Notes: generated by a model not told the origin, from the sequence alone. A stretch of 38,475 nt of DNA from Desulforudis sp. (GCA_003604975.1 QZIR01000052.1:1-38475), one strand, 5' to 3'. Shown: positions 1,266-20,833, numbered from the stretch's first letter. Numbers and translations are program-made.

Positions 1266-1302
1266 CGGACAGAGTAAGTGAACAAAAAAACTGGAGAATG
1301 TG

Positions 1303-4249: not shown

Positions 4250-4261
4250 ATAAAGAATATT

Positions 4262-4409
4262 CCTGCCACAGGAACGGGGCCGCGGCGCCTGGCAACAGAA
4301 GCCGATTCAATTCAGTCAGTAGTTCGTTCAAGGTGATAGCCAGTCCATACCACAAAAAATTGTGGCTTCACCGATACCCCCTGATCAACTTGACCAAGGA
4401 GGAACGATC
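4262..4409 (+). promoter_or_regulatory. Structured leader RNA, module 1
   Basis: Three stems are conserved with five other copies. Hairpin 1 is CCTG/CAGG at 4262-4272. Hairpin 2 is CGGC (4283) with GCCG (4301), enclosing CTG-GCAA-CAG, a GNRA tetraloop. Hairpin 3 pairs GGTGA (4332) and GCCA with TGGC and TCACC (to 4372). In this copy the loop of hairpin 3 also holds CCACAA-AAAA-TTGTGG. AAGGAGG (4396-4402) precedes ATG 4410. Likely a cis-acting RNA; ligand or trigger unknown. Confidence 0.75.
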
Positions 4410-4595
4410 ATGCTGAACCTGCCATTCTCAGAATACACTCTGCTCAGACCAGGGAGCGAATTTGCTCAGTGGGATATCAGTTGGGACTGCGGTTTCGGAG
4501 GTAAGCCCGATGGTGCTGATTTGGGGCACGCATTATCACGGCTGCTCTCTCCGCATTGGATACAGATATCTCAGGTCGGGCAGAGCAGGTCATGA
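4410..4595 (+). CDS. Small leader-linked protein, 61 aa
   Basis: Starts at ATG 4410, eight bases after AAGGAGG, with MLNLPF, the same opening as the proteins at 8081, 9230 and 20050. After about 12 residues it loses the hydrophobic segment seen in those relatives and reads as an unremarkable soluble stretch. Its TGA overlaps the start of the PrsW-like gene as ATGA, so its main role may be translational coupling. It could also be a frameshifted remnant of the small membrane protein family. Confidence 0.55.
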   Translation: MLNLPFSEYTLLRPGSEFAQWDISWDCGFGGKPDGADLGHALSRLLSPHWIQISQVGQSRS

Positions 4596-5587
4596 GTCCA
4601 TTTCTGATTGTTTCTGCGCTCGCGCCATCTGCCGTTATCCTGTGGTGTGCGTGTGGCGGTGACCTGTATCTCAAATCAGGCAGGGGGCTCTGGATGACAT
4701 TGGTGCTTGGAGCCCTGACCTGTATTCCCCTGTGTCTGATTTCTGTCCCGATCATAAATAGTCTTGAAACGTTTCTCTCAGGGGGAGCATCTGGTGCTGC
4801 CTGGCAGGCTTTTGTTTTCGTCGCGCTCCCTGAGGAGCTGGTCAAATTCCTCGTGCTGGTCCTTTATGGTTTGAGGCGGCCTGATTTCAGGAGAGCGATG
4901 GATGGCGTCCTTTACGGTTTAGCGGCTTCATTGGGGTTCGCCACAATAGAAAACATAATGTACGTGTCATCATATGGCTTCGGAACTGCGGCAGTGCGCG
5001 CACTCACGTCGGTGCCTGGTCATGCCCTGTGGGGTGGAATTATGGGCTATTACGCCGGCCAAGCATGTTTTTCCGGAATTGGCAATTCCTGGCGTTTCTG
5101 GGTTCTTGCACTCCTCGTTCCAGTGGCCCTCCATGGTTTATTTGATTTTCCCTTGATGGCGCTATGCAATACGTCCAGTACGAATGATAGAGTTGTCTGG
5201 CTTATGGTGTGGTTGTTTTTTGGGCCGGGGCTTCTGTGGGAGTGCTGGAAGCGGTTGAGGCCCCGGATCGAGGCATTGCGCGCCGAGAAGGTTCTTGTAC
5301 GGGAAGATGTTCTGGGGGGACAATTAAAAAAGGACCTCCGGGTGCGTCTGTCGTTCGGTAAGGAAAGTGCGGTTTTTTTCTTTGGGGTGGTGACGACAAT
5401 AGCCGGTGCGCTGCTCTGTAGTGCTGTGGTAGCGGCATTATTCGTGGTAATTTGTGATGTACCGGGATCGCTGGGTAGCCATAGATTTTATGATGTATTT
5501 CTCGGAACATTCCTCATGGGCATACCTATGGCCTGGTTTGGAATCTGTCTCTTCAGGAGCGGTTGCCGGCGAATGGCTGTGGGATAG
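4592..5587 (+). CDS. PrsW-family intramembrane metalloprotease-like protein
   Basis: A 331-residue multi-pass membrane protein. The start ATG 4592 overlaps the stop of the preceding small ORF (ATGA). Family signatures appear in order: PEELVKF (E81, E82), an FATIEN block (E120, N121), GHALWGG (H144) and HGLFDF (H181), each in or beside hydrophobic segments. These are the conserved Glu and His residues of PrsW proteases, which in Bacillus cleave the anti-sigma factor RsiW in the membrane. About 110 residues follow the core, with two more membrane segments. Its substrate here is unknown. An anti-sigma-like or membrane-anchored protein of the nearby system (kinase, small membrane proteins) is a natural guess but not shown. 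Confidence 0.85.
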   Translation: MSPFLIVSALAPSAVILWCACGGDLYLKSGRGLWMTLVLGALTCIPLCLISVPIINSLETFLSGGASGAAWQAFVFVALPEELVKFLVLVLYGLRRPDFRRAMDGVLYGLAASLGFATIENIMYVSSYGFGTAAVRALTSVPGHALWGGIMGYYAGQACFSGIGNSWRFWVLALLVPVALHGLFDFPLMALCNTSSTNDRVVWLMVWLFFGPGLLWECWKRLRPRIEALRAEKVLVREDVLGGQLKKDLRVRLSFGKESAVFFFGVVTTIAGALLCSAVVAALFVVICDVPGSLGSHRFYDVFLGTFLMGIPMAWFGICLFRSGCRRMAVG

Positions 5588-5744
5588 AATATCTGGTCGG
5601 GAATATTTTTTCCCGTGATAAGGCGTAGGAAGGTGTTTCGTGAGCTCTTGCCACTTTGGCCTGCACCCGCTAAAATTTGCTCCTGAATGGAGCGTATATT
5701 TCATGAATGCACGGTTAATTCCATTGATACAGGAGAGCTGACAG

Positions 5745-6254
5745 ATGGCTGACAATGATGCAAAAAAATTCTCCGCGGAAGATGATCTCTCTGATTTAAA
5801 TTTAATTGCGCAATACTGGGGGTGTGACTGGCTGGGATTAGTTGTAGGGAGCAGATATTTCATTTCCAGGGGATTCCAAATTCGCCTTGCCTTGAGCATT
5901 TCGGAGAATTCCACAGATGAAATGTCTAAATATCCAATTTTTCCAGTGCGTAAGCAGCCTGGTGACTATGTTTTTTTGCTGCATAATGTTTGCATCGAAA
6001 AGGATGGCTCCATGTTTATTGTCGATTGTGATCTGGAATCATATCCACTCGAGTTTAACGATTCGACCACCGGTGCAGATGTCCGTGCTCAGGCAATCAC
6101 GCTTTTGGACAGTATCCCTGACGAGGAATACAGAATACTTTGTGCAGAGCATCGTAACGAACGGGGTGAATTTGGCAGGACGACACAGCCCGCCCTTTCC
6201 GATTTCAAAATTATCAAGAATCCGTACATACGGACCAGTCCCCGGGTAAAGTAA
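5745..6254 (+). CDS. Hypothetical protein, 169 aa
   Basis: ATG 5745 follows CAGGAGAG at a good distance. The protein is soluble, acidic, without signal peptide or membrane segments. It has alternating hydrophobic strands and aromatic residues, so an alpha/beta fold is likely, but I recognise no family. It lies between the PrsW-like gene and leader module 2, with 157 and 188 noncoding bases on either side, so it may be a separate unit without a structured leader of its own. Confidence 0.65.
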   Translation: MADNDAKKFSAEDDLSDLNLIAQYWGCDWLGLVVGSRYFISRGFQIRLALSISENSTDEMSKYPIFPVRKQPGDYVFLLHNVCIEKDGSMFIVDCDLESYPLEFNDSTTGADVRAQAITLLDSIPDEEYRILCAEHRNERGEFGRTTQPALSDFKIIKNPYIRTSPRVK

Positions 6255-6442
6255 TGTTTTGTTGGCACCGCATCACATTTAGTTCTTTTTGTGAGTTTTT
6301 CCTGACGGGCACGAGTTCCGCCCCTTGGAATTGCCGAAGGAATACATGCATATAATTACCTGTAATTAATTATAATTTCATGAAATTTGCGAGTGAGCGA
6401 AGTCAGTTATGCAATTGGCATGTTTATTGATAAAGGAGAGCA
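6246..6442 (+). repeat. Upstream arm of module 2, shared with module 6
   Basis: This segment matches 20413-20594 in long blocks: GGCACCGCATCAC against GGCGGCATCAC, GTGAGTTTTTCCTG, GGCACGAGTTC, a TATATAA-like stretch with CTGTAATT, and CATGAAATT further on. TATAAT at 6351 is a possible -10 element, without a convincing -35. It probably holds the promoter of the module. Modules 3, 4 and 5 have a different upstream arm. Confidence 0.55.
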
Positions 6443-6511
6443 GTGAAGCAAAATAGAGAAATTCATAAGGATGACCATGAGAGAAGCGAGGGGGCGGTAA
6501 TGAACGACTGA
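6443..6511 (+). CDS. Small upstream ORF of leader module 2 (22 codons, GTG start)
   Basis: GTG 6443 has AAGGAG four bases upstream and opens 22 codons ending in TGA, 14 bases before hairpin 1. The peptide is strongly charged (HKDDHERSEG) and ends in Met-Asn-Asp, as does the ORF of module 5. Modules 3, 4 and 6 share an SRR-x-E/A-R core in the same place. It may be a leader peptide whose translation controls folding of the RNA behind it. Confidence 0.5.
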   Translation: MKQNREIHKDDHERSEGAVMND

Positions 6512-6525
6512 TCTGAAACAATCAC

Positions 6526-6674
6526 CCTGCCTTAGGAACGGGGCGCCGGCGCCTGGCAACAGAAGCCGAACCAGATCAGTCAGAAGTTCGTTCACGGTGA
6601 TGGCCAGTCCGGTCACGAATAAAAACATTGTGGCGTCACCGATAACCCTGATCACCCTAACAGGAGGAACGAAC
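6526..6674 (+). promoter_or_regulatory. Structured leader RNA, module 2
   Basis: Hairpin 1 is CCTGCCTTAGG (6526-6536). It differs from the other copies at the loop-closing positions, with a G-T pair in place of G-C. Hairpin 2 runs 6547-6568 with the CTG-GCAA-CAG tip. Hairpin 3 pairs CGGTGA (6595) with TCACCG (6636). AGGAGG (6662) sits seven bases before ATG 6675. The surrounding bases are well conserved with the other modules. Confidence 0.8.
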
Positions 6675-6950
6675 ATGCAGAACACGCTTTTCACCCCGGA
6701 ACTCATCGTCGTCCTTTGCCTCGCCCTGGCGCTCGTCATAACCGGCGGGCTGTCCTGGCGTCAGAAACGCTCTCCCCAGGTATCCGGCCCGAAACCCAAC
6801 CGGAAGGAATCCACACCCGATAACGAGCGGCTGAAAAGTAACATTCTGTACGGGGCGCGGATTATTGCCGCGGGCATGGAGCGGGATGTCGATTTGCTCC
6901 GAACCGGCAATGGGTATGCGAAATGGCCTGAGGAGAGCTTCTGGCGATGA
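6675..6950 (+). CDS. Small single-pass membrane protein, 91 aa
   Basis: Opens MQNTLFTPE, followed by one hydrophobic segment (about residues 10-26), then a polar basic tail. The C-terminal block GMERDVDLLRT...KWPEESFWR is clearly related to GMERNVNPIRT...KWPATHFWR of the protein at 20050-20358, so the two are paralogues. Ends ahead of a boundary box and the vWA lipoprotein gene, with which it may share a transcript. No known family. The conserved FWR end suggests a binding surface in the cytoplasm or periplasm. Topology is not decided by the sequence. Confidence 0.75.
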   Translation: MQNTLFTPELIVVLCLALALVITGGLSWRQKRSPQVSGPKPNRKESTPDNERLKSNILYGARIIAAGMERDVDLLRTGNGYAKWPEESFWR

Positions 6951-6999
6951 GGCCGGGTAAGTCCACAGCCTCTGAGCTGCCTGTTCCGGTAAAAATTTT

Positions 7000-7010
7000 A
7001 TGAGTTGCAT
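7000..7010 (+). repeat. Boundary box ATGAGTTGCA (copy 2)
   Basis: TTTTATGAGTTGCATAT sits between the small membrane protein and the vWA lipoprotein gene. It is the same box as at 3999, 7793 and 19749, but here it is not followed by an upstream ORF or the structured RNA. Confidence 0.55.
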
Positions 7011-7068
7011 ATAATAAGTGATGGACCAGTACGCCCCCATATCCAACCCATTCGCAGGAGGAACCGAC

Positions 7069-7776
7069 ATGAAAAGGATTAAGCACATCGCCGCCGTACT
7101 TGTTTGCCTCGGTTGTCTGCTGGCATGCAATACCCCGGCGGAAGCTTCCCGGTTCATCATTGTCGGCGTGGACGAGAGCGGTTCGTATGACCTGCGGAAC
7201 CTGAGCATGAAGCTCCTGGAGAGGCTGATCCTCAAGATCATGGAGCCGGGCGACAGCCTGTACGGCCGCAGGATAACCGACAAGAGTTATCTGGACAACG
7301 CGGATACCCAGTTGCTGCCGCAGGTCCTTGTTATCCCGGAATCCGCGGTGGCGACGAACAATTTTCTTGATCTTCGCGCCAAGCGGCAGGCGAAGGTGGA
7401 GAAGGCGCAGCAGGACCTGGTGCGGCTGCAGGCGATCAAGTACATCCGGGCGCTCAAGCCGGTCAAGGCACCCAAGACCGACATCCACGGATTTTTTGCC
7501 GCCTGCGGTGACCGCTTGGCCACCATGGAACAAGACCAGGAGAGAATCATCATCGTCGCCAGCGACATGGTGGACAACCAGCATCTCAAGAGCGAGGTCG
7601 ACCTTCACGGCGCGCGGGTGATCGTTGTCGCCTTTGAGAAAGAGGCAGACCCGAACAAGACGAAGAAGACCCGGGAGGTCTGGGCGCAGGCACTCCGGGC
7701 AATGAAAGCGGGAGACGTGCAGTTTCTGAGCCCGGACCAGGATATCAGCCCGGCTATCGCCGGTGAGGGGGCCTGA
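7069..7776 (+). CDS. vWA-like lipoprotein, 235 aa
   Basis: ATG 7069 is chosen because AGGAGG precedes it and a lipoprotein signal follows at once: a basic start, a hydrophobic stretch, and LLAC with the lipid-attachment Cys at residue 20. The mature part begins a vWA-like domain with VGVDESGS (D35, S37, S39), the metal-ion-dependent adhesion site DxSxS. A second hydrophobic strand ending in Asp (IIIVASDMVD) fits the third MIDAS element. Such domains bind protein partners through a metal ion. Probably anchored to a membrane facing the periplasm. It may serve as a sensor or adaptor for the membrane proteins encoded around it, but the partner is unknown. Confidence 0.75.
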   Translation: MKRIKHIAAVLVCLGCLLACNTPAEASRFIIVGVDESGSYDLRNLSMKLLERLILKIMEPGDSLYGRRITDKSYLDNADTQLLPQVLVIPESAVATNNFLDLRAKRQAKVEKAQQDLVRLQAIKYIRALKPVKAPKTDIHGFFAACGDRLATMEQDQERIIIVASDMVDNQHLKSEVDLHGARVIVVAFEKEADPNKTKKTREVWAQALRAMKAGDVQFLSPDQDISPAIAGEGA

Positions 7777-7792
7777 GGGGCGTTTGTATTTT

Positions 7793-7805
7793 ATGAGTTG
7801 CAAAT
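7793..7805 (+). repeat. Boundary box ATGAGTTGCAAAT (copy 3)
   Basis: Lies 17 bases after the stop of the vWA gene and 49 bases before the upstream ORF of module 3. It is identical over 13 bases to the copy at 19749, with flanking TTTT before both. Confidence 0.6.
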
Positions 7806-7853
7806 TACTTTTGAAGGCCAAAAGAACTATCCACAACCAGGAGGTCTGAGACT

Positions 7854-7922
7854 ATGAAGGAACTTATTTCCAGGAGAGAAGAGCGGGAGGTGCTATGGGC
7901 GACGGATATATGTAAAGATTGA
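7854..7922 (+). CDS. Small upstream ORF of leader module 3 (22 codons)
   Basis: AGGAGG at 7839 is nine bases upstream of ATG 7854, a clear initiation site. The peptide opens MKEL and has SRREERE in its first half, matching SRRGERG in module 4 and SRREARE in module 6. It stops with TGA only five bases before hairpin 1, the shortest such gap among the six modules. Confidence 0.6.
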   Translation: MKELISRREEREVLWATDICKD

Positions 7923-7927
7923 TCACT

Positions 7928-8080
7928 CCTGCCACAGGAACGGGGCCACGGCGCCTGGCAACAGAAGCCGATCCAATCCATTCAGACGTTCGTTCACGGT
8001 GATGGCCAGTCCGGTCACGAATACAAAACATTGTGGCTTCACCGGTATCCCTGACCAACTCGAACCCAGGAGGATCGAAC
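7928..8080 (+). promoter_or_regulatory. Structured leader RNA, module 3
   Basis: Hairpin 1 is CCTGCCACAGG (7928-7938). Hairpin 2 is CGGC (7949) with GCCG (7967) and a GCAA tetraloop. Hairpin 3 pairs CGGTGA (7997) with TCACCG (8039). AGGAGG (8068) lies seven bases before ATG 8081. Same order and spacing as the other copies. Confidence 0.8.
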
Positions 8081-8944
8081 ATGCTGAACTTGCCCATTGC
8101 CCAAGACATCCTGATTGCCTCGATTGTTGCCGGTGGCTTTATTGTTGGCGTATGCCTCTTGTACTGGCACATAACCAGAGAAGAGGGGGTCCGCCGGTTT
8201 CATCTGCATTTTCTGCGTATTTTCTTTATAGCGCTTCATCAGGCCGGGGAGTGGTGCGAGAATGGCTGGAGGGCCATTCTGTCCTGGCGGCGGCAGCAAA
8301 TGAGGGCCAGGTATGCCAGTATGAGGCCCAGTCATTGGTTGGTCTCCTTCCTCTGTTTAGTGCTCAGTCTGATCCTGCTGTTCTGCCAGGCGAGTGTTCT
8401 GGGACAGGTATTCGCCAGTTTCGGACGGGGGGAGACCCCGTTCCCCGCAGCAAGTCCGGGCATGCTGCTGGCAATCGCCATCTGGGCCGCTGCCGTCACC
8501 TGGGGAATCTTCCTCTTTGAGGCCTTGGGTGTTACACGTCTGCAGCCCTGGATGCACGGTATGAGCGGGTTCTCGCGCAAGGTGGTAGCCGCATTCTGCA
8601 TCCTGGGTATCATGGGATCACTTCTGTCCCAGGTTTATTTCGCGTCACCGGTCAGCACTGGCGTGCAGGATGACCAGGCATGGTTGCTCGTGGCGGCGGT
8701 TCTCGCTGCCATTGCCTCGATCAACGGCGCTGGTCTATTCAGCATGAACGGCAGCCTTGCCCTGCTGCATCTGCTTCTTCTGTGGGGTATCAGCACTGTT
8801 GCCGCCCTGCCGTTGGCTGCGGCGGAATTTGTTTTTCTGGTGGCGATGCGGCTGATGGTCATGGCGGATGGTATTGGCGGTGTCCTTGGTGTAAAGGGCC
8901 GTGAAAAGGCAGATGGTGGAGGACAGGATGATATTGCGCCGTAA
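8081..8944 (+). CDS. Multi-pass membrane protein, 287 aa
   Basis: Starts MLNLPIAQ directly behind a structured leader, sharing its opening with the small membrane proteins of the other modules, then continues as a much larger protein. I count about six hydrophobic segments, the first at residues 9-28 and the last near 235-265. A basic Arg-rich loop lies between the first two. It ends in a polar Gly/Asp-rich tail. No catalytic motif or transporter signature is recognisable. It may be an envelope component of the same system. The shared N-terminus suggests that a leader cassette was fused in frame to an unrelated gene. Confidence 0.75.
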   Translation: MLNLPIAQDILIASIVAGGFIVGVCLLYWHITREEGVRRFHLHFLRIFFIALHQAGEWCENGWRAILSWRRQQMRARYASMRPSHWLVSFLCLVLSLILLFCQASVLGQVFASFGRGETPFPAASPGMLLAIAIWAAAVTWGIFLFEALGVTRLQPWMHGMSGFSRKVVAAFCILGIMGSLLSQVYFASPVSTGVQDDQAWLLVAAVLAAIASINGAGLFSMNGSLALLHLLLLWGISTVAALPLAAAEFVFLVAMRLMVMADGIGGVLGVKGREKADGGGQDDIAP

Positions 8945-8950
8945 AATATC

Positions 8951-8960
8951 GTGAGTTGCT
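8951..8960 (+). repeat. Boundary box GTGAGTTGCT (copy 4)
   Basis: A variant of the box six bases after the stop of the membrane protein gene and ahead of module 4. Downstream bases (GAATGCCAAG...AACTA...AGCCAGGAGGT) also resemble module 3. Confidence 0.5.
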
Positions 8961-9011
8961 TATCCTTATTGAATGCCAAGCGAACTAACACTAGCCAGGA
9001 GGTATGCGACG

Positions 9012-9065
9012 ATGAAGGAACAAGGTTCAAGGAGAGGAGAGAGGGGGGCAGCTATGGAGACCTGA
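9012..9065 (+). CDS. Small upstream ORF of leader module 4 (17 codons)
   Basis: AGGAGGT at 8997 lies eight bases before ATG 9012. The peptide opens MKEQ, then SRRGERG, and ends in Ala-Met-Glu-Thr. It is close to the ORF of module 6, which ends Ala-Met-Glu-Asp. TGA is 12 bases before hairpin 1. Confidence 0.6.
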   Translation: MKEQGSRRGERGAAMET

Positions 9066-9077
9066 TATAAAGCAATC

Positions 9078-9229
9078 CCTGCCGCAGGAACGGGGCGACG
9101 GCGCCTGGCAACAGAAGCCGATCCGCATCATTCAGACGTTCGTTCACGGTGATGGCCAGTCCTGACACGAATACAAAACATTGTGGCTTCACCGGTATCC
9201 CCGATCAACCCGAACAAGGAGGAACGAAC
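9078..9229 (+). promoter_or_regulatory. Structured leader RNA, module 4
   Basis: Hairpin 1 is CCTGCCGCAGG (9078-9088), differing from other copies only in its loop. Hairpin 2 spans 9099-9120 with GCAA tip. Hairpin 3 pairs CGGTGA (9147) with TCACCG (9189). AAGGAGG (9216) is followed by ATG 9230. It heads the AAA+/kinase operon. Confidence 0.82.
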
Positions 9230-9394
9230 ATGCTGAACATTCTCTTCACCCAGGAAACCACCGTTGTCCTGAGAATCATCTGTGCGCTCGCCGTTAGCGG
9301 CGGACTCCGTCACCTTTCATTCAGCGATAGATGGAATCATTTTTCTCCAGAGACTTTCGATGTAGTCACCAGAGGACAGGAGGGCATCCGATGA
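9230..9394 (+). CDS. Small leader-linked membrane peptide, 54 aa
   Basis: The first 26 residues (MLNILFTQETT, then a hydrophobic run ending in ICALA and GGL) are almost identical at the DNA level to the start of the protein at 20050. The remainder is different and short. Its TGA overlaps the next start as ATGA, so translation of the operon is probably coupled to this ORF and therefore to the leader RNA. It may act only as a coupling peptide or be a true small membrane protein. Confidence 0.65.
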   Translation: MLNILFTQETTVVLRIICALAVSGGLRHLSFSDRWNHFSPETFDVVTRGQEGIR

Positions 9395-10734
9395 GTGGCG
9401 AAATCGTTTTGTTGCCTCTCGCGCCCGTAGCTTTCGGGGCCGTTGCAGGCGCTGCACTGACTGCGGTGGCTGTTGTAGCTGTCGGTTCAGTAACGATTGC
9501 TGCCGGGGGCGCACTCGCTCTTGGGCTGAAATCCGTTATTGATAAACGGGTCAGCTCGGCCGCCGAGGAAGCTAAGACCAAGGAGAAGGAGATTAAAGAA
9601 TGGTGGGACTATCAGGAGCAGAGTGCGAGGAAAATGTCTGCACTGTGGGAAAACCACAGTGCTCTTCTGGCCGCACAGCAGGAATTGCTGAAAGCGGGGT
9701 TGAATGAACGCAGGAAAGATGTGGTAGGTACTGGTCCCACCGCAACAGGGTATTTCACCCTTGGCCTTGACCGGGCCATCGCCGCCAGGGAAGCCGCTGA
9801 TGGGATGTTGAAAGAAATCAATGAAATACTTGCTGGAATCCCGCATGCCCTGGCCTCTGAGGCCGACTCTCCTGTTCCGAACCTCCTGGCCATGACGGAA
9901 AAGTTGCAACGCAAAGCACAATCAGACGCCCCCCCGTCCCTTGAAACGATCGAGGCATTCCGGAGAACAGTTCAGGATACTATCCGCACCTATGCGCAAA
10001 CCTGTGAGAAAAGGCAACAGACCACCCAATCGCTGATGCCCCGGCTTGAGAAACTGATCCTTGAGGCCGGAACATGGCAGCGGCTGGCGGCTACCCGGGA
10101 ACTGGCTTCCGGTATGAGCTCATTGCTGTCAAATCTGAAGGTGTTGTTGCTTAAAGGAAGGATATCCCTCGCCCAGGTGGAGACGATGGAAAAGAGACTG
10201 GCCACACTCAGGACGAAAATTGAGGCGAAGTTGGCGGAGAATGCCTACCGAACGGCCCTTGCTGAATCCCTGGCCAGAAACCTCGGGTCGATGGGGTATC
10301 GGGCAGTCAGTGATTTTGCGGAAGACCGTGAAGGCCGGGAGATGAGGGCCGAATTGGCCATTCCGGGGGGTGAAGCCCTGCGAGTCGGTGTTACCAGCGA
10401 TAACCGGCTCACATTCAAGGTAGTCCATACTATGGTGCCAGGGGAGAAAGATATGTCCGCAGGCCAGAAAAAAATGTACCGCGCGCAGGAAAAGAAGTGG
10501 TGCCAGGATATGCGAACCTTGCTGAGGATTCTGGCTAAGGAAGGCTTTACTTATGGGATTTTGGATGAAAAGACGATCCCCGATAACATCATTCCCAAAG
10601 CCGTCCTGGAAGACGTCGAGGGAATTCTTGCCCGCAGGGATGAGGAACAGCGGTGGGCCATTGAGGGTGATGAGGCTGACGAAATGCGTCGGAGGGTGGT
10701 TCTGGACCAGAAAACTCAGGAACGGGAGGCATAG
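9391..10734 (+). CDS. Membrane-anchored coiled-coil protein, 447 aa
   Basis: Starts at ATG 9391 overlapping the preceding stop. An Ala/Val/Gly-rich hydrophobic N-terminus (about residues 5-45) could form one or two membrane segments. Long, charged, Ala/Glu/Lys-rich helices follow, typical of coiled coil (about 50-300). The C-terminal 130 residues look globular. Heptad-like spacing and the lack of catalytic motifs suggest a scaffold or adaptor. It is adjacent to the AAA+ gene (stop TAG directly followed by its ATG), so it is a likely partner or substrate adaptor of that ATPase. No family recognised. Confidence 0.75.
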   Translation: MSGEIVLLPLAPVAFGAVAGAALTAVAVVAVGSVTIAAGGALALGLKSVIDKRVSSAAEEAKTKEKEIKEWWDYQEQSARKMSALWENHSALLAAQQELLKAGLNERRKDVVGTGPTATGYFTLGLDRAIAAREAADGMLKEINEILAGIPHALASEADSPVPNLLAMTEKLQRKAQSDAPPSLETIEAFRRTVQDTIRTYAQTCEKRQQTTQSLMPRLEKLILEAGTWQRLAATRELASGMSSLLSNLKVLLLKGRISLAQVETMEKRLATLRTKIEAKLAENAYRTALAESLARNLGSMGYRAVSDFAEDREGREMRAELAIPGGEALRVGVTSDNRLTFKVVHTMVPGEKDMSAGQKKMYRAQEKKWCQDMRTLLRILAKEGFTYGILDEKTIPDNIIPKAVLEDVEGILARRDEEQRWAIEGDEADEMRRRVVLDQKTQEREA

Positions 10735-13328: not shown

Positions 13329-13338
13329 TCAAACGGAT

Positions 13339-13872
13339 ATGGAACAGTATAAAGTTAAAATTTGTCCACTCTGCGGGTATAAAAATTCTGAGTTTGCCAG
13401 ATTATGTAAGAATAAGAATATCGACTGCAGAAATCCTCTTAACAGGGTCAATCCTCAGCCGGACCCAGACGTGTCCGCCGAGGAACATCCTGTCGATTCT
13501 CCGGAAGAATCTCCTCGGGAGGAAAATGAGAGCCAGTTCGCTTCAGGCAGTGATGAGGCGTCACTGGTCCTTGAGCTTCCAGGCATGACGTTGGAAATTC
13601 AACCCAACGATGTCCTGGGCAGGACCTTTCCCGGTAGCATCGCTACCAAGCAGGTTGATGGAATGCCGGGCATCAACTTCATGCACCGGCGACATTGCTC
13701 CTTTGCTTGTGTGGCTGGGCAGTGGCAGGTTATTGCCATCCCAGGCGAGCGCTTCACCAACCCGACTCAGGTGAATGGCGTCAGTGTTCCGCCGGGTACT
13801 GCCAGAGGACTGCGCGATGGGGACAGATTGCAACTTTCAGGGGTCAATTTCTCGGTGAGGATTTTTCCATGA
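13339..13872 (+). CDS. Zinc-ribbon and FHA-domain protein, 177 aa
   Basis: The N-terminus has CPLC (C9, C12) and two further Cys (C23, C30), a likely zinc ribbon. An acidic Pro/Glu/Ser-rich linker (about 35-70) follows. The C-terminal 100 residues fit a forkhead-associated domain: an LGR strand, RRHCSF in place of the usual SRRHA, a PTQVNGV loop and a final LRDGDRLQLSG strand. FHA domains bind phosphothreonine. With a kinase and a PP2C phosphatase next door, this is the probable phospho-reader. Its TGA overlaps the PP2C start as ATGA, so the two are made together. Confidence 0.82.
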   Translation: MEQYKVKICPLCGYKNSEFARLCKNKNIDCRNPLNRVNPQPDPDVSAEEHPVDSPEESPREENESQFASGSDEASLVLELPGMTLEIQPNDVLGRTFPGSIATKQVDGMPGINFMHRRHCSFACVAGQWQVIAIPGERFTNPTQVNGVSVPPGTARGLRDGDRLQLSGVNFSVRIFP

Positions 13873-14738
13873 AAAATTTTAGTGCGTACGGCTTTGCCGA
13901 TATTGGCTCAGTCAGGACAGTCAACGAAGACCATATTCTTTTGGGGCGATTTATCAAAAACCGCGGTGGGATGGGGTTGTCCTTCTCTGAGGATGACGAT
14001 TTTGCCAGGGGCTATGGATTGATTTTTGCGGTAGCTGACGGTATCGGCGGTGAGCGTGCCGGAGAGGTTGCCAGTAGGATCGCCCTGGAGGTGATGGAGC
14101 AGCACTACTATGGCTTTACCAGGGATCAGAATAATCCCGATGCATTTACACAAGCTGTCCTTATCTCGAGCACAAAAGCCAATGAACGTATCCTGGAGCT
14201 GAGTGCATGTCGTCCGGAATATAGGGGCATGGGCTGCACGTTAAGCGGAATCTGCCTCATGCCTTCCGGAATCCTTACGTTTAATGCAGGAGACAGCCGA
14301 GTCTACAGATTCAGGGCCGGCTCCATGCGACAGCTTACCGAAGATGATTCCCTGGTTGGCCTGGCGGTCCGCATGGGACATCTGACCATCGAGGAGGCTG
14401 CCGTTTCCCCGCAACGGCACACGATTATCAACAACCTCGGCAGTTCAGGTTTCAGGATCACAATTCAGCCATTACTGGAGTGGCAGGATAACGATCATAT
14501 CCTGATCTGCTCCGACGGTCTGCACGATATGGTTTCCGTTGACATGATAAAAAAGACTCTCGGTGTGGAGGGCAGTCCAGAACAGGCGGTTCGCTCCCTC
14601 GTGCAGCAGGCAAAGGATAATGGCGGATATGACAATATTTCCGCGATCATTGTTCATTGTACAGAGGGAAATGGTAACGATTTCAGTGGGAAAGGTTTGA
14701 GGCGAGAATATTTGGAGTGCGGTGACGATCATGAGTAA
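13869..14738 (+). CDS. PP2C-family Ser/Thr protein phosphatase, 289 aa
   Basis: A complete bacterial PP2C: an opening RTVNEDH block, VADGIGG (metal-binding Asp), a GMGCTL strand, FNAGDSRVYRF, ICSDGLHDM and a closing DNISAIIV. These carry the Asp residues that bind two Mn/Mg ions for removal of phosphate from Ser/Thr. No signal peptide or membrane segment. It starts inside the FHA gene stop and its own end overlaps the kinase start by eight bases, the classic coupled pair of a kinase and its opposing phosphatase. Confidence 0.93.
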   Translation: MKNFSAYGFADIGSVRTVNEDHILLGRFIKNRGGMGLSFSEDDDFARGYGLIFAVADGIGGERAGEVASRIALEVMEQHYYGFTRDQNNPDAFTQAVLISSTKANERILELSACRPEYRGMGCTLSGICLMPSGILTFNAGDSRVYRFRAGSMRQLTEDDSLVGLAVRMGHLTIEEAAVSPQRHTIINNLGSSGFRITIQPLLEWQDNDHILICSDGLHDMVSVDMIKKTLGVEGSPEQAVRSLVQQAKDNGGYDNISAIIVHCTEGNGNDFSGKGLRREYLECGDDHE

Positions 14739-17241
14739 TGAAGGATTCACAGACCACTTTTCCCCTTCCGGGGGTACCGATGCCTTCCCCGGGCAAGGAG
14801 GTAGCTCGGCGGGCGCGACCGATGCTTTTGGGCAATCTCAGGATGAGTATCGCCACGATCACGCTCTTGGTGAGGATGAGGTTGTCGACAATCGTTTTGT
14901 TGTGCAGGGGCCGCCGATAGCTGCAGGAGGTGAGGCGGAAATTTACCGGTGTATTGATCAGGAGACGCAGGAGACCGTAGCCCTGAAGCTGTACCGGATC
15001 GCCTTGCAACCGAAGGCTTCAATCCTTGAAAAATTGCGTAATGTTTCACATCCTAATCTGATCCGGGTCATTTCTTTTGGGGTATGGCAGGATAAATTCT
15101 ATGAGGTCACGGAGTATTGCGAGGGTGGAACGCTCGCCGACAGTCAGCCGCTGGCAGAGAGTGATCTGCTGCCGATACTGTCGGCGATTATCGGCGGCCT
15201 GGCCCACTTGCATCTGCAAGGCATCATTCACCGGGACATCAAGCCGGAAAACCTCTATTTCAGAGACAGGGACAGAAAGGACCTGGTTATTGCTGATTAC
15301 GGCATCAGTTCCCTCCTGCCTGACGGAAAGCAAGTGTGGAAGACCGGAACCTACAAGAGTTTGACCCCTTCGTTTGCCCCCCTGGAGTTTTTCATCAAAA
15401 ATGAAGTCTCATTCAAATATGATTATTATTCGCTGGGAATCACCCTGATCCACATCTTTACCGGGAAATCCCCATTCCCGGACCAGGACCCCCGAGTTAT
15501 CTTCGCATTCCTGCTTCAGGAGCATGTTCCGGTACCTTCACATCTGTCCCAGCACGTCCAAAGACTCATTACCGGCTTAATTCAGCATGATCCCGAGAAT
15601 CGCTGGGGACAGAAACAGATTGAGCAATGGAGTTCCGGCCAGCAAATTCTTGCGGATGCAGGAATGCCCTGGGAGGACAAACCTCCGAGAGACAGGGGTA
15701 TCCCTGCCTACAAAGCCTGTGGGGCTCGAACCCTCAAAGAGCTTGCTGCCTTGCTGGGAACATTTGATGCGGTCGGGCATCTTTTCGATGGCTATATTGA
15801 TCCCTGGGTAAATTGGTTCGATTCGGACCTTGCCCAAAAAATCAAAAAAATTACAGATAACTATGGCAACAGAAAAGAACTTGGTCTGTTCAGGCTTACT
15901 TATCTGCTTGATCCTGCCCTTCCTCTCGAAATCAACAAGCGCAAATTCCATACTATTGAGGAAATTGCCTCTCTCCTCCAGTCCAAACCGGACAAAAGTA
16001 CGAGAAATGCCCTGTCTGATATTATCATGGGAGAGTTTTTAGAATGCTGGATCGAGGTTACCCAGCCGGTCGAAGGCAAGCAAACTTTACTGCGAGCCGT
16101 TGAGTCGATCCGTACCCGTTTCCATGATCACCCGGATAAGGACCTCGCAATTTTTGCTCTTCTTTACATCCTTGCTCCTCAGGCACCACTCACTCTGCGC
16201 AAGGATATTTCTATCTCCCGCCCCGAAGAGATCGAAGGGGCGGTCTCCCGCCATCCCGATATCCTGATCGCCCTCCGAACCCTTCTGTTCAGCGGGCATT
16301 TTGAGGAATGGCTGCGCGGAGCATTTCAGGACAGACAAGGGGACATTGCCTTCATTGAGCATTTCCGTTCCGCGCATAAGAATGACCAGGATTTGGGGGT
16401 ATGGATGTTGAGATGGCATTTCGCGCCCTCGTTGCCTTTTCCCTTTGGTAAGGAACATGCAGCGGCACCCAAAGATCTTGCCCGTCTCATCGATAAGGAT
16501 GAGGCCTCGACCAGGAAGGGAATCTCCCTTATGCAGAAAGGCTGGATTCGTGCGTGGCTTGAAACAACCGGCATGCTGGACGGGGAGAAAGGGAAGAAGT
16601 TTTCCGCCATCACCTCCTCTGGCCGTAATGCGCAAAGCCAGCTGGAAAGCATGCTTCACTTTTTGGATCCTGGGTTGCCGTGGCCGAAACCTGCTGCCTC
16701 GCGTCAGAACATAGACTTCGGGGAGATTTCGTACGAATCCTCAAAAACAGAGCGCTTCACCATCAAAAATGCGGGGCGGGGGTATCTTACCGGATCAATC
16801 AAACTTACCGGCAAGGGCCATGGATTTGCGATCGACAAGAGCAGCATAGAGGGTGGGCCAGTCACGATTACCGTGAGTGCCAATGGCCACGGTTTTCAAA
16901 TCGGGACCCGCCGACAGACGGAAATCATGGTCCAGACCGATGGCGGGACATTGACCATCCCGGTCCATTATCTGGTAAGCCTGCCCATCAAAAGGATGCT
17001 TATTAGGAGCCTGATATGCGGCGCGGTAGGCGGGTTAATTTTTGGTACATTCCGAAAGCTGGTCAGTCTTTCCGCTCCGGAATATGCTGCTGTAATTCCT
17101 CCCTTTGCCCGGGATATAGCCTTCCAGCACCCTGCCATTGTTATATTAGGATTTTTCTTCAGTCTTGCAGTTGGAGGTTCTCTTTACTACGCGATTCGAA
17201 TGAATATAGCAAAGTATTCAATTCGCAAACGACATGTATAA
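14731..17241 (+). CDS. Membrane-anchored Ser/Thr protein kinase, 836 aa
   Basis: ATG 14731 is within the end of the PP2C gene. A Ser/Gly/Asp-rich N-terminal tail of about 50 residues precedes a Hanks-type kinase domain (about 55-300): VALK with K86, HRDIKPEN with D169, and DYG (189-191) in place of DFG. A large alpha-helical middle region (about 330-655) has several repeats of a similar unit, followed by an Ig/ASH-like beta domain (about 660-750). Two membrane segments close the protein (about 755-775 and 800-825). This places most of it in the cytoplasm, with an anchor at the C-terminus, unlike PknB kinases, whose sensor is outside. Probable partner of the FHA protein and AAA+ ATPase. Confidence 0.9.
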   Translation: MSNEGFTDHFSPSGGTDAFPGQGGSSAGATDAFGQSQDEYRHDHALGEDEVVDNRFVVQGPPIAAGGEAEIYRCIDQETQETVALKLYRIALQPKASILEKLRNVSHPNLIRVISFGVWQDKFYEVTEYCEGGTLADSQPLAESDLLPILSAIIGGLAHLHLQGIIHRDIKPENLYFRDRDRKDLVIADYGISSLLPDGKQVWKTGTYKSLTPSFAPLEFFIKNEVSFKYDYYSLGITLIHIFTGKSPFPDQDPRVIFAFLLQEHVPVPSHLSQHVQRLITGLIQHDPENRWGQKQIEQWSSGQQILADAGMPWEDKPPRDRGIPAYKACGARTLKELAALLGTFDAVGHLFDGYIDPWVNWFDSDLAQKIKKITDNYGNRKELGLFRLTYLLDPALPLEINKRKFHTIEEIASLLQSKPDKSTRNALSDIIMGEFLECWIEVTQPVEGKQTLLRAVESIRTRFHDHPDKDLAIFALLYILAPQAPLTLRKDISISRPEEIEGAVSRHPDILIALRTLLFSGHFEEWLRGAFQDRQGDIAFIEHFRSAHKNDQDLGVWMLRWHFAPSLPFPFGKEHAAAPKDLARLIDKDEASTRKGISLMQKGWIRAWLETTGMLDGEKGKKFSAITSSGRNAQSQLESMLHFLDPGLPWPKPAASRQNIDFGEISYESSKTERFTIKNAGRGYLTGSIKLTGKGHGFAIDKSSIEGGPVTITVSANGHGFQIGTRRQTEIMVQTDGGTLTIPVHYLVSLPIKRMLIRSLICGAVGGLIFGTFRKLVSLSAPEYAAVIPPFARDIAFQHPAIVILGFFFSLAVGGSLYYAIRMNIAKYSIRKRHV

Positions 17242-17406
17242 TAATAAAATATAATGTTTGTCGTGCAATTAATTGATTTGATACCAATGCAATGCATGGA
17301 AAATAGTATAGAAGTTTTGTTCGAAATGTACCCCGTAAAAAAGATGATCAACCGCTAATAGTTGCTATGGAAAGAACCTTAACAATACTGCGATAAGGAG
17401 CTTGTC

Positions 17407-19527
17407 ATGGAAGCGATTCTGTGGATAATCCTTGCCATAGTAGCTATTGGTGTCATCTGTTTCGCCATCTATATCGTCCTGCTAGTTATAATGGGGTTGT
17501 TCTGGAGCGTCATGACGGTCTCCGACTGGTACCTCCAGGCCACTGCCCACTCTACCTTGCTCAATCACATTCCAGGCTGGGAACCTGAATTCTCATGGGC
17601 CCTCGGCGGATTTATTTTCTGTGGAGTTGGTTATTTTGTGCTTATGGAAGCTCACCGGATTCACCGGGCAAAGTTTGAATATTATTGTTATCTGCTGCTT
17701 GTCTTCATTCTTGTTGTGCCCTTGATCCTGCAAGCTATGTTGAAGACTCCTGCACCGCAACCAGTATCAAATAGCGAGGCGGCAGGCCAGGAGTATCTTT
17801 CGCCATTGACTGTTGAAGAGTCTGCATCGCCCAAAAAATCAAATCCTGACTTGGTTATCCAGGAGGGCAAATATGAAGGAGAAGTGATTGGCTGGAACTG
17901 GACAACCCGCCCGTGTACTCCCGCGGGTTCCTGCGAAACGGGGGAAGGTAAAATTGTATACACTGTTTCGTTACAGGGTAACAATTCCAGTTATACAAGA
18001 TCTGCGGAGTTTGTTTACGGGTTGAATGTGACGAGTAATGATCAGCCCATGCAGGAATTTGCCGCCTGCGGTACTCAGGAAAACACATACTGGCATGATT
18101 GCTTCCAAAAGCTTTTGAAGGAATATTTGAAGCCTGGAGGAAGCGCTTCTCTTTTCGTGAGTTGCCGGAGTGACCAAGGATGTATTGCAAGCAGAATTGA
18201 CCTGCGAACGAATGATATGAATCCTGAGGAGGTAGCACAATCCGAGCCGGAACCGACAGTAATTGCTGATACTTCAACACAAAAAGTGGATAGGGATACG
18301 ACTTCGTCGACAAGCACGGTGAATACTTCGCCCGCGCCGGTTGAACAAGGCCAGCAAGTTGGCAATCGGGGAAATGATAGTAGTGCCGCTGATTCTCCCC
18401 AAGAGGAGGAAAAACACAGGTTGACAACGATGAACGGTAGGCCAGAGGGGCCTTTGGCCACAACAGCATCAACAAAGTACACGGGGACCTTGCTGGGGTG
18501 GAAGCATGAAATAGTTCCTTGCGGCCCTTCAGATGCCTGTGGGTCACAAAAAAATCATCCTGTCTACTCTCTTACGTTAATAGATGAAATTTCGGGACAT
18601 ACAAAATCATTCAAATTTTATCTGGGGTTAGGTGTTACACGCGATGGGAGTACAGTTGAAGGATTTCTAGAATGTTTTGAAGGAACAAACTGGCATGCAT
18701 GCTTTCAAAAACTCCTGACTGTTTTTATGAAAAGTGGGGTACTCGCAACGGTTCATGTCTTCTGCGATGAAGGTCAGGAATGTTATGCAAAGCGTATCGA
18801 CTTGTTAACTGATGGCATGAATTCAAGGGATGGCGTAGTCGGCCCCATGCAGACTGAGGTGGCGGGCGTTAATTCTCCTCAAGCGAGAGAAAAGGCTGAC
18901 ATGAACCAGACGCCGATGACGCAACCTGAGCCGGCAGCGAACGATATTGCCGAGCCTGCTGTGAAAAAAGTTGATGAAAGGAAAGCATCAACGGTAAGCG
19001 TTGGAGATGATCATCGCCAGCAGGGAAGGCAGAGGCTGTACGATAGAAATAAGATAATGGACAGCAAGCCCTTGGTAGATAACAAAGGCGCATCCCGCCG
19101 GGTAAAGCAGCCCGTCGAGGATTCTCCTCAAGTGAAAGGACCGCCAGTCGCGGGGGTGATGAGCAGGGGAACCGGAGGAGCTGTTGCCCGGCAGGACAAA
19201 AAGTATTTAGGTTCCCCTCCTGCCGGGCGATATTCACAACACACCGAATCGATTATTGAAAAGTCTATTATTATTGATGGCTATGATATGCAACAACTGC
19301 AAAATATTTTTGAGCATAAACAATCAGGGACATCAAATTCATGGCTGAATATACACACGGGTATTAGGTATCTGGTTATTCCCCGGCCAGCGTATGGGGT
19401 AAGGCAACGTAATGGAATTATTCACTGCCGTGAGGCCGAGATCAGTATGACAAACAATGCAGGGGGAAGGGCAATAAAGCTGATGAATACGTGTCGGCTG
19501 GGTGGCAAATGGGATATCAGATTTTGA
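17407..19527 (+). CDS. Membrane protein with duplicated Cys-containing domain, 706 aa
   Basis: Starts at ATG 17407 after AAGGAG. Three hydrophobic segments occupy about residues 1-115. Two homologous domains follow (about 155-280 and 355-480), each with a GW...PC...C opening, a central YGLNVT or YLGLGVT strand, then C, W, H and CFQKLL, and a closing C...C. These paired Cys may form disulfides if outside the cytoplasm. A long disordered Ser/Pro/Gln-rich linker leads to a C-terminal domain of about 100 residues. No known family. It lies 165 bases after the kinase without a structured leader of its own, so it could be part of the same transcript or have its own promoter. Confidence 0.75.
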   Translation: MEAILWIILAIVAIGVICFAIYIVLLVIMGLFWSVMTVSDWYLQATAHSTLLNHIPGWEPEFSWALGGFIFCGVGYFVLMEAHRIHRAKFEYYCYLLLVFILVVPLILQAMLKTPAPQPVSNSEAAGQEYLSPLTVEESASPKKSNPDLVIQEGKYEGEVIGWNWTTRPCTPAGSCETGEGKIVYTVSLQGNNSSYTRSAEFVYGLNVTSNDQPMQEFAACGTQENTYWHDCFQKLLKEYLKPGGSASLFVSCRSDQGCIASRIDLRTNDMNPEEVAQSEPEPTVIADTSTQKVDRDTTSSTSTVNTSPAPVEQGQQVGNRGNDSSAADSPQEEEKHRLTTMNGRPEGPLATTASTKYTGTLLGWKHEIVPCGPSDACGSQKNHPVYSLTLIDEISGHTKSFKFYLGLGVTRDGSTVEGFLECFEGTNWHACFQKLLTVFMKSGVLATVHVFCDEGQECYAKRIDLLTDGMNSRDGVVGPMQTEVAGVNSPQAREKADMNQTPMTQPEPAANDIAEPAVKKVDERKASTVSVGDDHRQQGRQRLYDRNKIMDSKPLVDNKGASRRVKQPVEDSPQVKGPPVAGVMSRGTGGAVARQDKKYLGSPPAGRYSQHTESIIEKSIIIDGYDMQQLQNIFEHKQSGTSNSWLNIHTGIRYLVIPRPAYGVRQRNGIIHCREAEISMTNNAGGRAIKLMNTCRLGGKWDIRF

Positions 19528-19744
19528 TGGTCTTGGACAAAAGAGATGTTTCAGGGGTTTCCTTTAAGAATAGTTTCTCGAAATCTGTCTGTAGTTGACC
19601 CCATTTGAGCCAACTACCGTAAGTGTTATTAATCAGTTCATTAAATACCCTGCAAGAGCCACGGGGTGCATGAAGTAACTGGCCAGCTTGTCGGGGAGCA
19701 TATTCAGGTGGAATTCCCTCGAAATAGGATATGGGAATAGTCAT
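19517..19744 (-). CDS. Possible small minus-strand protein, 75 aa
   Basis: A minus-strand reading from ATG 19744 to 19517 gives 75 protein-like residues, including FEGIPPEYAPRQAG and an NTYGSWLKWGQ stretch. The plus strand in the same place has no usable ORF. It overlaps the end of the 706-residue protein by 11 bases. I see no ribosome site before the start, so it may be a remnant of a longer gene. No family recognised. Confidence 0.35.
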   Translation of the reverse strand: MTIPISYFEGIPPEYAPRQAGQLLHAPRGSCRVFNELINNTYGSWLKWGQLQTDFEKLFLKETPETSLLSKTIKI

Positions 19745-19748
19745 TTTT

Positions 19749-19761
19749 ATGAGTTGCAAAT
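19749..19761 (+). repeat. Boundary box ATGAGTTGCAAAT (copy 5)
   Basis: Identical to the copy at 7793 over 13 bases. Located 91 bases before the upstream ORF of module 5. Between box and ORF only an AGCCAAGAGGTCTGAGACGA ribosome-site stretch is shared with module 3. Confidence 0.6.
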
Positions 19762-19839
19762 AAGTTTTAATGTCCGGCCTAAGGTAAACGCGCAGTGGTT
19801 TTCAAAACCAGTAAACACAGAGCCAAGAGGTCTGAGACG

Positions 19840-19881
19840 ATGAATAAGGAGAAAGAGAGGGAGACATCAATGAACGACTGA
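19840..19881 (+). CDS. Small upstream ORF of leader module 5 (13 codons)
   Basis: AAGAGG at 19825 lies nine bases before ATG 19840. A short charged peptide (MNKEKERE) ending in Met-Asn-Asp like module 2. TGA is 12 bases before hairpin 1. The shortest of the six, apparently by internal deletion. Confidence 0.5.
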   Translation: MNKEKERETSMND

Positions 19882-19893
19882 TATAAAGCAATC

Positions 19894-20049
19894 CCTGCCG
19901 CAGGAACGGGGCGACGGCGCCTGGCAACAGAAGCAGATCCGCATCATTCAGCCGTTCGTTCACGGTGATGGCCAGTCCGGTCACGAATACATAACATTGT
20001 GGCTTCACCGGTATCCCAGATCAACTCGACCCAAGGAGGAACGAACAAC
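19894..20049 (+). promoter_or_regulatory. Structured leader RNA, module 5
   Basis: Hairpin 1 is CCTGCCGCAGG (19894-19904). Hairpin 2 (19915-19936) has CGGC opposite GCAG, one mismatch in a stem that is perfect in the other five copies, with the GCAA tetraloop kept. Hairpin 3 pairs CGGTGA (19963) with TCACCG (20005). AAGGAGG (20033) is ten bases before ATG 20050. Confidence 0.8.
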
Positions 20050-20358
20050 ATGCTGAACATTCTCTTCACCCAGGAAACCACCTTTGTCATGATCATCATC
20101 TGTGCGCTCGCGTTTATCGGCGGGCTGTACCGGAACCAAAATCGATTCCCAGCGAATGAAGTCCCGAAGCCAGGACGGCAGGAACTCCCGGATGAGGGTT
20201 CCTCGCATTTACCGGACATCAGTGCCGGCCAGCGGCCGGAAAGTGATCCTGTCCTGACCTATGCGCGGTTGCTCACCGACGGGATGGAGCGGAATGTTAA
20301 CCCGATCCGCACCATTGAGACCTGTGAGAAATGGCCTGCGACTCATTTCTGGAGATAA
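20050..20358 (+). CDS. Small single-pass membrane protein, 102 aa
   Basis: Opens MLNILFTQETTFV, followed by a hydrophobic segment (to about residue 25), then a polar Pro/Glu-rich tail. It shares its N-terminus with the 54-residue ORF at 9230 and its C-terminus (GMERNVN...THFWR) with the 91-residue protein at 6675, so it links the two. It is a stand-alone gene between a structured leader and module 6. No known family; likely a small membrane partner of the same system. Confidence 0.75.
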   Translation: MLNILFTQETTFVMIIICALAFIGGLYRNQNRFPANEVPKPGRQELPDEGSSHLPDISAGQRPESDPVLTYARLLTDGMERNVNPIRTIETCEKWPATHFWR

Positions 20359-20594
20359 CGGTGCCCGCCAGCAGGAGCAGAACTGAAGTCGAGCGGTTGT
20401 TCCCGGTGAGTGTCCTGTGAGTTGGCGGCATCACAGTCGGTTTCTGTTGTGAGTTTTTCCTGGCTGGCACGAGTTCTTTCCCCGTGGAGGCGCCTTAGGG
20501 TATGTATATAACTATCTGTAATTCTATATGATTGATAAAAAATGTTGGGTTTTGCGGGCTGTTCATGAAATTGGTATGTTTTTTGATTAAAGAG

Positions 20595-20663
20595 ATGCGC
20601 CGGAGCAAAATGGGACATCAAGATTCAAGGAGAGAAGCGAGGGAGGCGGCTATGGAGGACTGA
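20595..20663 (+). CDS. Small upstream ORF of leader module 6 (22 codons)
   Basis: ATG 20595 opens 22 codons. An in-frame ATG at 20610 with GGAG four bases upstream is an alternative start. The peptide has SRREAREAAMED at its end, the clearest version of the motif seen in modules 3 and 4. TGA is 12 bases before hairpin 1. The region before it (20413-20594) matches the upstream arm of module 2. Confidence 0.5.
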   Translation: MRRSKMGHQDSRREAREAAMED

Positions 20664-20675
20664 TCTAGAGCAATC

Positions 20676-20833
20676 CCTGCCACAGGACCGGGGCTGCGGC
20701 GCCTGGCAACAGAAGCCGATTAAATACAGTCAGAAGTTCGTTCACGGTGATAGCCAGTTCGAATTGTTCGTGTCCCAAAAAATTGTGGTTTCACCGATAA
20801 TCCCGGATCAACCAGAACCAGTGGAGGAACAAC
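20676..20833 (+). promoter_or_regulatory. Structured leader RNA, module 6
   Basis: Hairpin 1 is CCTGCCACAGG (20676-20686). Hairpin 2 spans 20697-20718 with GCAA tip. Hairpin 3 pairs CGGTGA (20745) with TCACCG (20791), and its inner GCCA pairs with TGGT through a G-T wobble. The loop of hairpin 3 is the most divergent. GGAGG (20823) precedes ATG 20834. Confidence 0.8.

What the first reader, a model, noticed from the sequence alone, without database searches (positions are those of the whole stretch)
4262..20833. Six copies of a conserved three-hairpin leader RNA across 17 kb
Seen directly: copies at 4262, 6526, 7928, 9078, 19894 and 20676 share hairpin 1 (CCTG/CAGG), hairpin 2 (CGGC...GCCG with CTG-GCAA-CAG tip) and hairpin 3 (CGGTGA...TCACCG with inner GCCA/TGGC), always followed by a strong ribosome site and a start codon. 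Changes are concentrated in loops, and at some paired positions wobble keeps the stem (G-T in hairpin 1 of module 2, and in hairpin 3 of module 6). I do not recognise it as any riboswitch class I know. A structured RNA used this often in one island is a strong candidate for a new cis-regulatory RNA family, either ligand-binding or acting by translation control.
Basis: partly seen in the sequence, partly recalled or inferred. Interest (0 to 1): 0.92.

Follow-up and report, generated by a model that had tools for sequence, protein, structure and literature searches.

The report
Repeated mRNA leader with tmRNA-like hairpin
Ten genes in two gene islands of one bacterium each start with the same roughly 155-nt folded RNA leader behind a tiny upstream reading frame; it is probably a translation-control element, and its first half closely resembles the tail of the ribosome-rescue RNA (tmRNA) of a different bacterial class.

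Summary
All six copies are at the stated places. Four more copies and one decayed copy lie on a second contig of the same genome. The leader (H1 to start codon) is 74-92% identical in every pair, while the flanks have mostly diverged to background. Stem columns vary less than unpaired ones. No Rfam family reaches threshold, and no other genome searched has the leader.

Three things were missed. (1) Every copy is preceded by a small open frame ending 3-13 nt before hairpin 1. (2) An invariant GUUCGUUC before hairpin 3 pairs with GAACGAAC between the Shine-Dalgarno sequence and the start codon in most copies, which predicts a masked ribosome site. (3) The H1-CGGGGC-H2 part matches the 3' domain of alphaproteobacterial two-piece tmRNA. 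A tmRNA-only profile hits exactly the ten leaders (17-20 bits; next site 3; best shuffle 9). The host's own tmRNA is the one-piece kind.

Most likely this is a repeated translation-control leader that borrowed, or converged on, a tmRNA hairpin. Mechanism and transcription are inferred, not shown. Gene duplication and conversion with incidental structure is the main rival.

The parts
4260..4409 (+). leader copy 1 (H1 4262-4272, H2 4283-4304, GTTCGTTC 4322-4329, H3 4331-4373, SD 4398-4402)
   Evidence: 162 bits
6524..6674 (+). leader copy 2 (H2 6547-6568, GTTCGTTC 6586-6593, GAACGAAC 6667-6674)
   Evidence: 165 bits
7926..8080 (+). leader copy 3 (H2 7949-7970)
   Evidence: 178 bits
9076..9229 (+). 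leader copy 4 (H2 9099-9120)
   Evidence: 182 bits
19892..20046 (+). leader copy 5 (H2 19915-19936; one outer pair broken)
   Evidence: 176 bits
20674..20833 (+). leader copy 6 (H2 20697-20718; most diverged)
   Evidence: 150 bits
4229..4249 (+). upstream open frame of copy 1 (MTRMGN; no SD seen, weakest case)
6443..6511 (+). upstream open frame of copy 2 (GTG start, 22 codons)
7854..7922 (+). upstream open frame of copy 3 (MKELISRREEREVLWATDICKD, SD AGGAGG)
9012..9065 (+). upstream open frame of copy 4 (MKEQGSRRGERGAAMET, SD AGGAGG)
19840..19881 (+). upstream open frame of copy 5 (MNKEKERETSMND)
20610..20663 (+). upstream open frame of copy 6 (MGHQDSRREAREAAMED)
4410..4595 (+). 61-aa ORF directly after leader 1, overlapping the start of a PrsW-like protease gene (to 5587)
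6675..6950 (+). 91-aa small membrane protein after leader 2
8081..8944 (+). 287-aa multi-pass membrane protein after leader 3, no known family
9230..9394 (+). 54-aa ORF after leader 4, followed by a 467-aa ORF
20050..20358 (+). 102-aa small membrane protein after leader 5
20834..21310 (+). 158-aa protein after leader 6
7790..7805 (+). island-specific upstream box TTTATGAGTTGCAAAT (also 3996, 6997, 19746), possible promoter or operator

Best explanation
A repeated cis-acting translation-control leader. Each unit is a small upstream open frame, a tmRNA-like domain (H1, CGGGGC, H2 with a GCAA-capped tip), hairpin H3, and a helix in which the invariant GUUCGUUC pairs with the sequence between the Shine-Dalgarno sequence and the start codon (GAACGAAC) and so masks the ribosome site. 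A ribosome ending on the upstream frame stands with its front edge at H1. Its presence or absence, or a factor that recognises the tmRNA-like domain, is proposed to decide whether the downstream site opens. The unit was multiplied over about ten genes of two related islands and is kept alike by gene conversion and selection. Shown: the repeat, its focal conservation, the stem-biased conservation, the upstream frames, the complementarity and predicted masking, and the tmRNA-domain similarity. Inferred: that it is transcribed, that the frame is translated, that the helix forms in the cell, and the coupling itself.
For: H1-to-ATG identity is 74-92% in all 45 pairs, against mostly under 60% upstream and 20-48% in the coding sequence after codon 12 for non-orthologous genes. 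Stem columns are more conserved than unpaired ones, and GTTCGTTC and GGAGG are 10/10. RNAalifold independently predicts H2, H3 and the masking helix. The mean pairing of GUUCGUUC with the SD-start stretch is 0.79 or more in 9 of 10 copies, and SD accessibility is 0.03-0.35. The 8-nt complement occurs in 5 of 10 copies with p about 0.003-0.006 each by shuffles. An upstream frame ends 3-13 nt before H1 in 10/10, 8 with an SD-like match. No + strand terminator was found in the leader copies scanned (copies 2, 3 and 4), so translation rather than termination. The tmRNA-like domain is supported by a tmRNA-only profile.
Against: No covariation within the ten copies beyond shuffles. Five copies keep only a 6-nt stretch of the masking helix, which shuffles give in 11-15% of cases. 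In copy 3 the predicted fold does not contain the helix (0.08). There are no homologues elsewhere. The stop-to-start distance of roughly 160 nt is long for simple translational coupling. No expression data.
Confidence: 0.5

Rival explanations
1. DNA-level module: genes of the islands arose by duplication and carry along a common 5' stretch that gene conversion keeps alike; the RNA structure is mostly incidental.
For: Leaders tend to group by contig rather than with the leader of the orthologous gene (for example c8108 is 91% like its neighbours and 86% like its ortholog), a sign of concerted evolution. No covariation. Some outer pairs are broken.
Against: Conversion tracts would not by themselves spare stems and let loops vary. 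The conserved block ends close to the start codon and the flanks on both sides have diverged. H2 with its apex is a covarying structure in tmRNA.
Confidence: 0.25
2. Operator for an RNA-binding protein: an island protein or a host factor binds H1-GGGG-H2 (or H3) and sets translation of all the genes together.
For: H2 is 21/22 invariant including loop and internal loop, and the same apex CCUGGCAACAGAA is nearly invariant in alphaproteobacterial tmRNA while its outer stem changes, which suggests recognition of the apex.
Against: No candidate RNA-binding protein was recognised among the island proteins tested with Pfam, NCBIfam and PADLOC. The tmRNA partner of this domain is not known to me.
Confidence: 0.15
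3. A metabolite-binding riboswitch of a new class.
For: Structured leader, no Rfam match, predicted masking of the ribosome site.
Against: Genes are small membrane proteins and defence-like genes, not metabolic. The most conserved part resembles a tmRNA domain, not a pocket. Restricted to one species.
Confidence: 0.07

Closest known systems
Alphaproteobacterial permuted (two-piece) tmRNA, Rfam RF01849, 3' terminal domain
   Same: Hairpin, then CGGGG, then a hairpin with outer stem, 2x2 internal loop (GC or AC against AA) and CUG-GCAA-CAG tip; 21 of 21 core letters equal to the Parvularculaceae, Hyphomonadaceae and Brevundimonas variant; lies behind the stop of a short reading frame in both.
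   Different: No tRNA-like domain, no CCA, no recognisable tag frame, no U-run after H2; H1 is short; two extra A after H1; followed by H3 and a ribosome site; below the gathering score (9-18 bits against 50).
Translation attenuators with a leader peptide (erm/cat type; from general knowledge)
   Same: Upstream frame with SD, then hairpins, with the ribosome site predicted to be masked by upstream RNA.
   Different: No stalling peptide or inducer known; the peptides are variable; H1-H2 lie between the frame and the masking helix; no demonstrated alternative fold.
Orphan candidate cis-regulatory RNA motifs (comparative-genomics type, e.g. PMC2864571)
   Same: Repeated structured leader before several genes.
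   Different: Those rest on covariation across many genomes; here a single species.

Membership tests
alpha_tmRNA (RF01849) | Covariance-model score over gathering threshold (50 bits) | tested here: not met
   Best 17.6 bits in the own genome, although the 8 best hits of 3.1 Mb are all leaders
alpha_tmRNA (RF01849) | tRNA-like domain with acceptor stem and T arm | tested here: not met
   ARAGORN finds none in the window; only the 3' domain aligns convincingly
alpha_tmRNA (RF01849) | Alanine-starting tag frame (ANDN...AA) | tested here: not met
   Upstream frames read MKELISRREAREAAM... and similar
alpha_tmRNA (RF01849) | 3' domain CGGGG + GGC.CCUGGCAACAGAA.CC hairpin | tested here: met
   tmRNA-only profile HMM: ten leaders at 17-20 bits, next 3.0, best of 100 shuffled windows 9.2
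Any Rfam cis-regulatory family or riboswitch | Match over gathering score | tested here: not met
   0 matches; permissive scans give only chance hits and alpha_tmRNA at E 0.06-0.66
Translation attenuator with leader peptide | Upstream frame conserved in position before the structured leader | tested here: met
   10/10 frames end 3-13 nt before H1, 8 with an SD-like match; translation itself not shown
Translation attenuator with leader peptide | Downstream ribosome site masked, with an alternative unmasking fold | tested here: inconclusive
   Masking predicted in 9/10; an alternative partner GAACG after H1 is seen only by eye
Transcription attenuator | Intrinsic terminator in the leader | tested here: not met
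   No + strand terminator-like site in the copies scanned, copies 2-4
Riboswitch | Ligand-dependent structure | not testable with these tools
   Needs structure probing with candidate ligands

The most novel reading that the evidence does not exclude
A domain of tmRNA, the ribosome-rescue RNA of another bacterial class, was taken up by a mobile, defence-like island and built into about ten mRNA leaders behind small reading frames, where it still acts on terminating or stalled ribosomes to set translation of the genes downstream.
Probability: 0.2. Interest if true: 0.8.

Novelty: new variant of a known kind. Interest (0 to 1): 0.5.

Why it matters
If the tmRNA-like part is homologous, it would be a rare case of a tmRNA domain working outside tmRNA, and would make the role of the conserved CCUGGCAACAGAA hairpin in two-piece tmRNA (for which I found no account) testable. 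A leader multiplied over ten genes of one island also offers a built-in way to switch a whole set of membrane and defence-like genes together.

Tried and rejected
Rfam at gathering and permissive thresholds: nothing but weak alpha_tmRNA. Covariation within the copies: none. Homologues by covariance model in the order (113), nearest relatives (60) and phylum (398 genomes): only this genome; one 26-bit hit in G237 and one 29-bit hit in G244 look like chance. Island proteins in plasmids and viral contigs: none; leader DNA in plasmids and phages: none. Haliea match to the 21-mer: lies inside what reads as a coding stretch, taken as chance. Rare-arginine-codon sensing in the upstream frame: rejected, AGG is 22% and AGA 14% of arginine codons in the window genes. 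Host tmRNA as the source: rejected, it is one-piece with tag ADDYNYAVAA and gets no hit from the leader model. A tag-like reading of the GTTGCAAAT box was considered and dropped as unsupported; the box also precedes a gene without the leader. Literature: no paper found in the held library on a tmRNA-like leader.

Full report
What is there. The six copies reported are real and at the stated coordinates. The core 22-mer occurs six times in the window and never in 100 dinucleotide shuffles. The window is contig C31 of a 3.14-Mb genome in 75 contigs. Four further full copies lie on contig C10, together with one decayed H1-H2 piece between two of them. The C10 cluster repeats part of the same gene order: counterparts of the 91-, 235-, 287- and 102-aa genes.

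Extent of the unit. In an alignment of all ten copies with flanks, the block from hairpin 1 to the start codon is 74-92% identical in every pair. The region upstream of the small frame is 14-59% identical, except one ortholog pair at 93%. The coding sequence after codon 12 is 20-48% identical, except three ortholog pairs at 73-91%. The first 12 codons keep intermediate similarity. The conservation is therefore focal and ends near the start codon. Leaders tend to be more like their neighbours on the same contig than like the leader of the orthologous gene on the other contig (for example c8108: 91% to neighbours, 86% to its ortholog w19894), which points to concerted evolution.

Structure. Stem columns are invariant more often than unpaired columns (46/58 against 44/94, Fisher p = 8e-5); H2 is 21/22 invariant, while the spacer (5/17) and the H3 loop (6/25) vary freely. 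Covariation is absent: pairing and covariation measures are reached by 148 of 500 column shuffles. A fourth helix was missed. GTTCGTTC just before H3 is invariant in all ten copies and is complementary to GAACGAAC between the Shine-Dalgarno sequence and the start codon. RNAalifold finds it unprompted. Single-sequence folding gives it 0.79 or more in nine of ten copies with the Shine-Dalgarno sequence mostly paired. Full 8-nt complementarity is present in five copies (shuffle frequency 0.003-0.006 each) and 6 nt in the other five (0.11-0.15 each).

Upstream reading frame. Every copy has an open frame whose stop lies 3-13 nt before H1 (10-13 nt in eight copies), usually with a Shine-Dalgarno-like match and an Arg/Glu-rich peptide such as MKELISRREAREAAM. 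Copy 1 is the weakest case. By general knowledge of ribosome footprints, a ribosome on that stop codon would reach about to H1. No intrinsic terminator lies in the leader copies scanned (copies 2-4), so control at translation is favoured over transcription attenuation. The arginine codons used are not rare in this genome.

The tmRNA likeness. No Rfam family reaches its gathering score, but the permissive scan put alpha_tmRNA near the top. The exact 21-nt core occurs in 48 contig stretches of about 85,000 species. Where checked, these are the 3' end of the alphaproteobacterial permuted tmRNA gene or short tandem units just behind it, apart from one coding stretch in Haliea. Scanning the own genome with RF01849, the eight best hits of 3.1 Mb are all leaders, at 10-18 bits. 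Because the first set of loci had been chosen by the shared 21-mer, I drew 142 alphaproteobacterial genomes; the 34 with a match carry the domain once per genome, and of the 30 loci returned ARAGORN places most at a permuted tmRNA gene and leaves the rest uncalled. The model used for that draw (R2) included four leaders, a mild bias. A profile HMM made only from those tmRNA sequences then hits exactly the ten leaders at 17-20 bits (E about 1e-5), with the next site at 3 bits and the best of 100 shuffled windows at 9.2. In the mixed set the outer stem of H2 covaries (16 cells with changes on both sides, 0 of 500 shuffles), so H2 has independent structural support, though in the tmRNA context. 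The host's own tmRNA is of the one-piece kind and does not resemble the leader. Homology by transfer and convergence on the same recognised hairpin both remain possible; allowing for the choice among 4,227 families the match is still unlikely to be chance by my rough estimate, but it rests on about 30 nt.

Distribution. The full-leader model finds nothing in 60 nearest relatives, 113 genomes of the order or 398 of the phylum beyond this genome and one chance-like hit, and the short domain model finds only the ten leaders in 398 genomes of the phylum, plus one 29-bit hit that looks like chance. Plasmid, phage and viral collections are negative; the one viral hit is a phage-borne alpha-type tmRNA.

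Context. The downstream genes are small or multi-pass membrane proteins without family assignment, lying among a PrsW-like protease, a ClpB-like AAA protein, radical SAM, FHA, PP2C and Ser/Thr kinase genes (kinase related to MAD6), a HerA/TraD-like ATPase and a CRISPR array with a CARF-nuclease-like gene, so a defence-like island is a fair reading. A 16-nt box TTTATGAGTTGCAAAT is found, at up to two mismatches, only in the two islands and also precedes a gene without the leader, so a separate transcription signal probably exists.

Judgement. The most likely function is translation control by masking of the ribosome site, linked to the upstream frame, with the tmRNA-like domain as a recognised or ribosome-facing element. 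Transcription, translation of the small frame, helix formation in the cell and the coupling are all inferred. The main rival is a duplicated and gene-converted DNA module whose structure matters little.

Noticed in passing
window 199-1268 and 1300-3336: CRISPR array of 16 repeats beside a 678-aa protein with CARF/PDDEXK (Csx1-like) similarity.
   Followed up: partly
L023, L029, L030, L053, L064 (just downstream of the tmRNA gene): In Marinicaulis and other Parvularculaceae the tmRNA gene is followed within about 50-250 nt by one to three further hairpin-GGGG-hairpin units with the same CCTGGCAACAGAA apex and changed stems; cause unknown.
   Followed up: partly
window 3996, 6997, 7790, 19746 and contig C10: Island-restricted 16-nt box TTTATGAGTTGCAAAT upstream of genes with and without the leader.
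   Followed up: partly
window 6415-6434, about 20570-20590, and the C10 counterpart: The other type of upstream region carries TTGGCATGTTTATTGAT-like sequences with sigma-54-like spacing, and C10 encodes a sigma-54 activator (L009 15227-16846).
   Followed up: no
window 31279-31937: Six 108-nt tandem repeats inside an ORF (Sel1/TPR-like repeat protein by eye).
   Followed up: no
L082 1803-2208: A 100-kb viral contig carries its own alpha-type permuted tmRNA and 12 tRNA genes in the stretch read.
   Followed up: no
window 4410-9391, 20050-21307: Proteins behind the leaders share an N-terminal MLNxLFTQE-like start although the rest is often unrelated, so the first codons seem to belong to the repeated unit.
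   Followed up: partly
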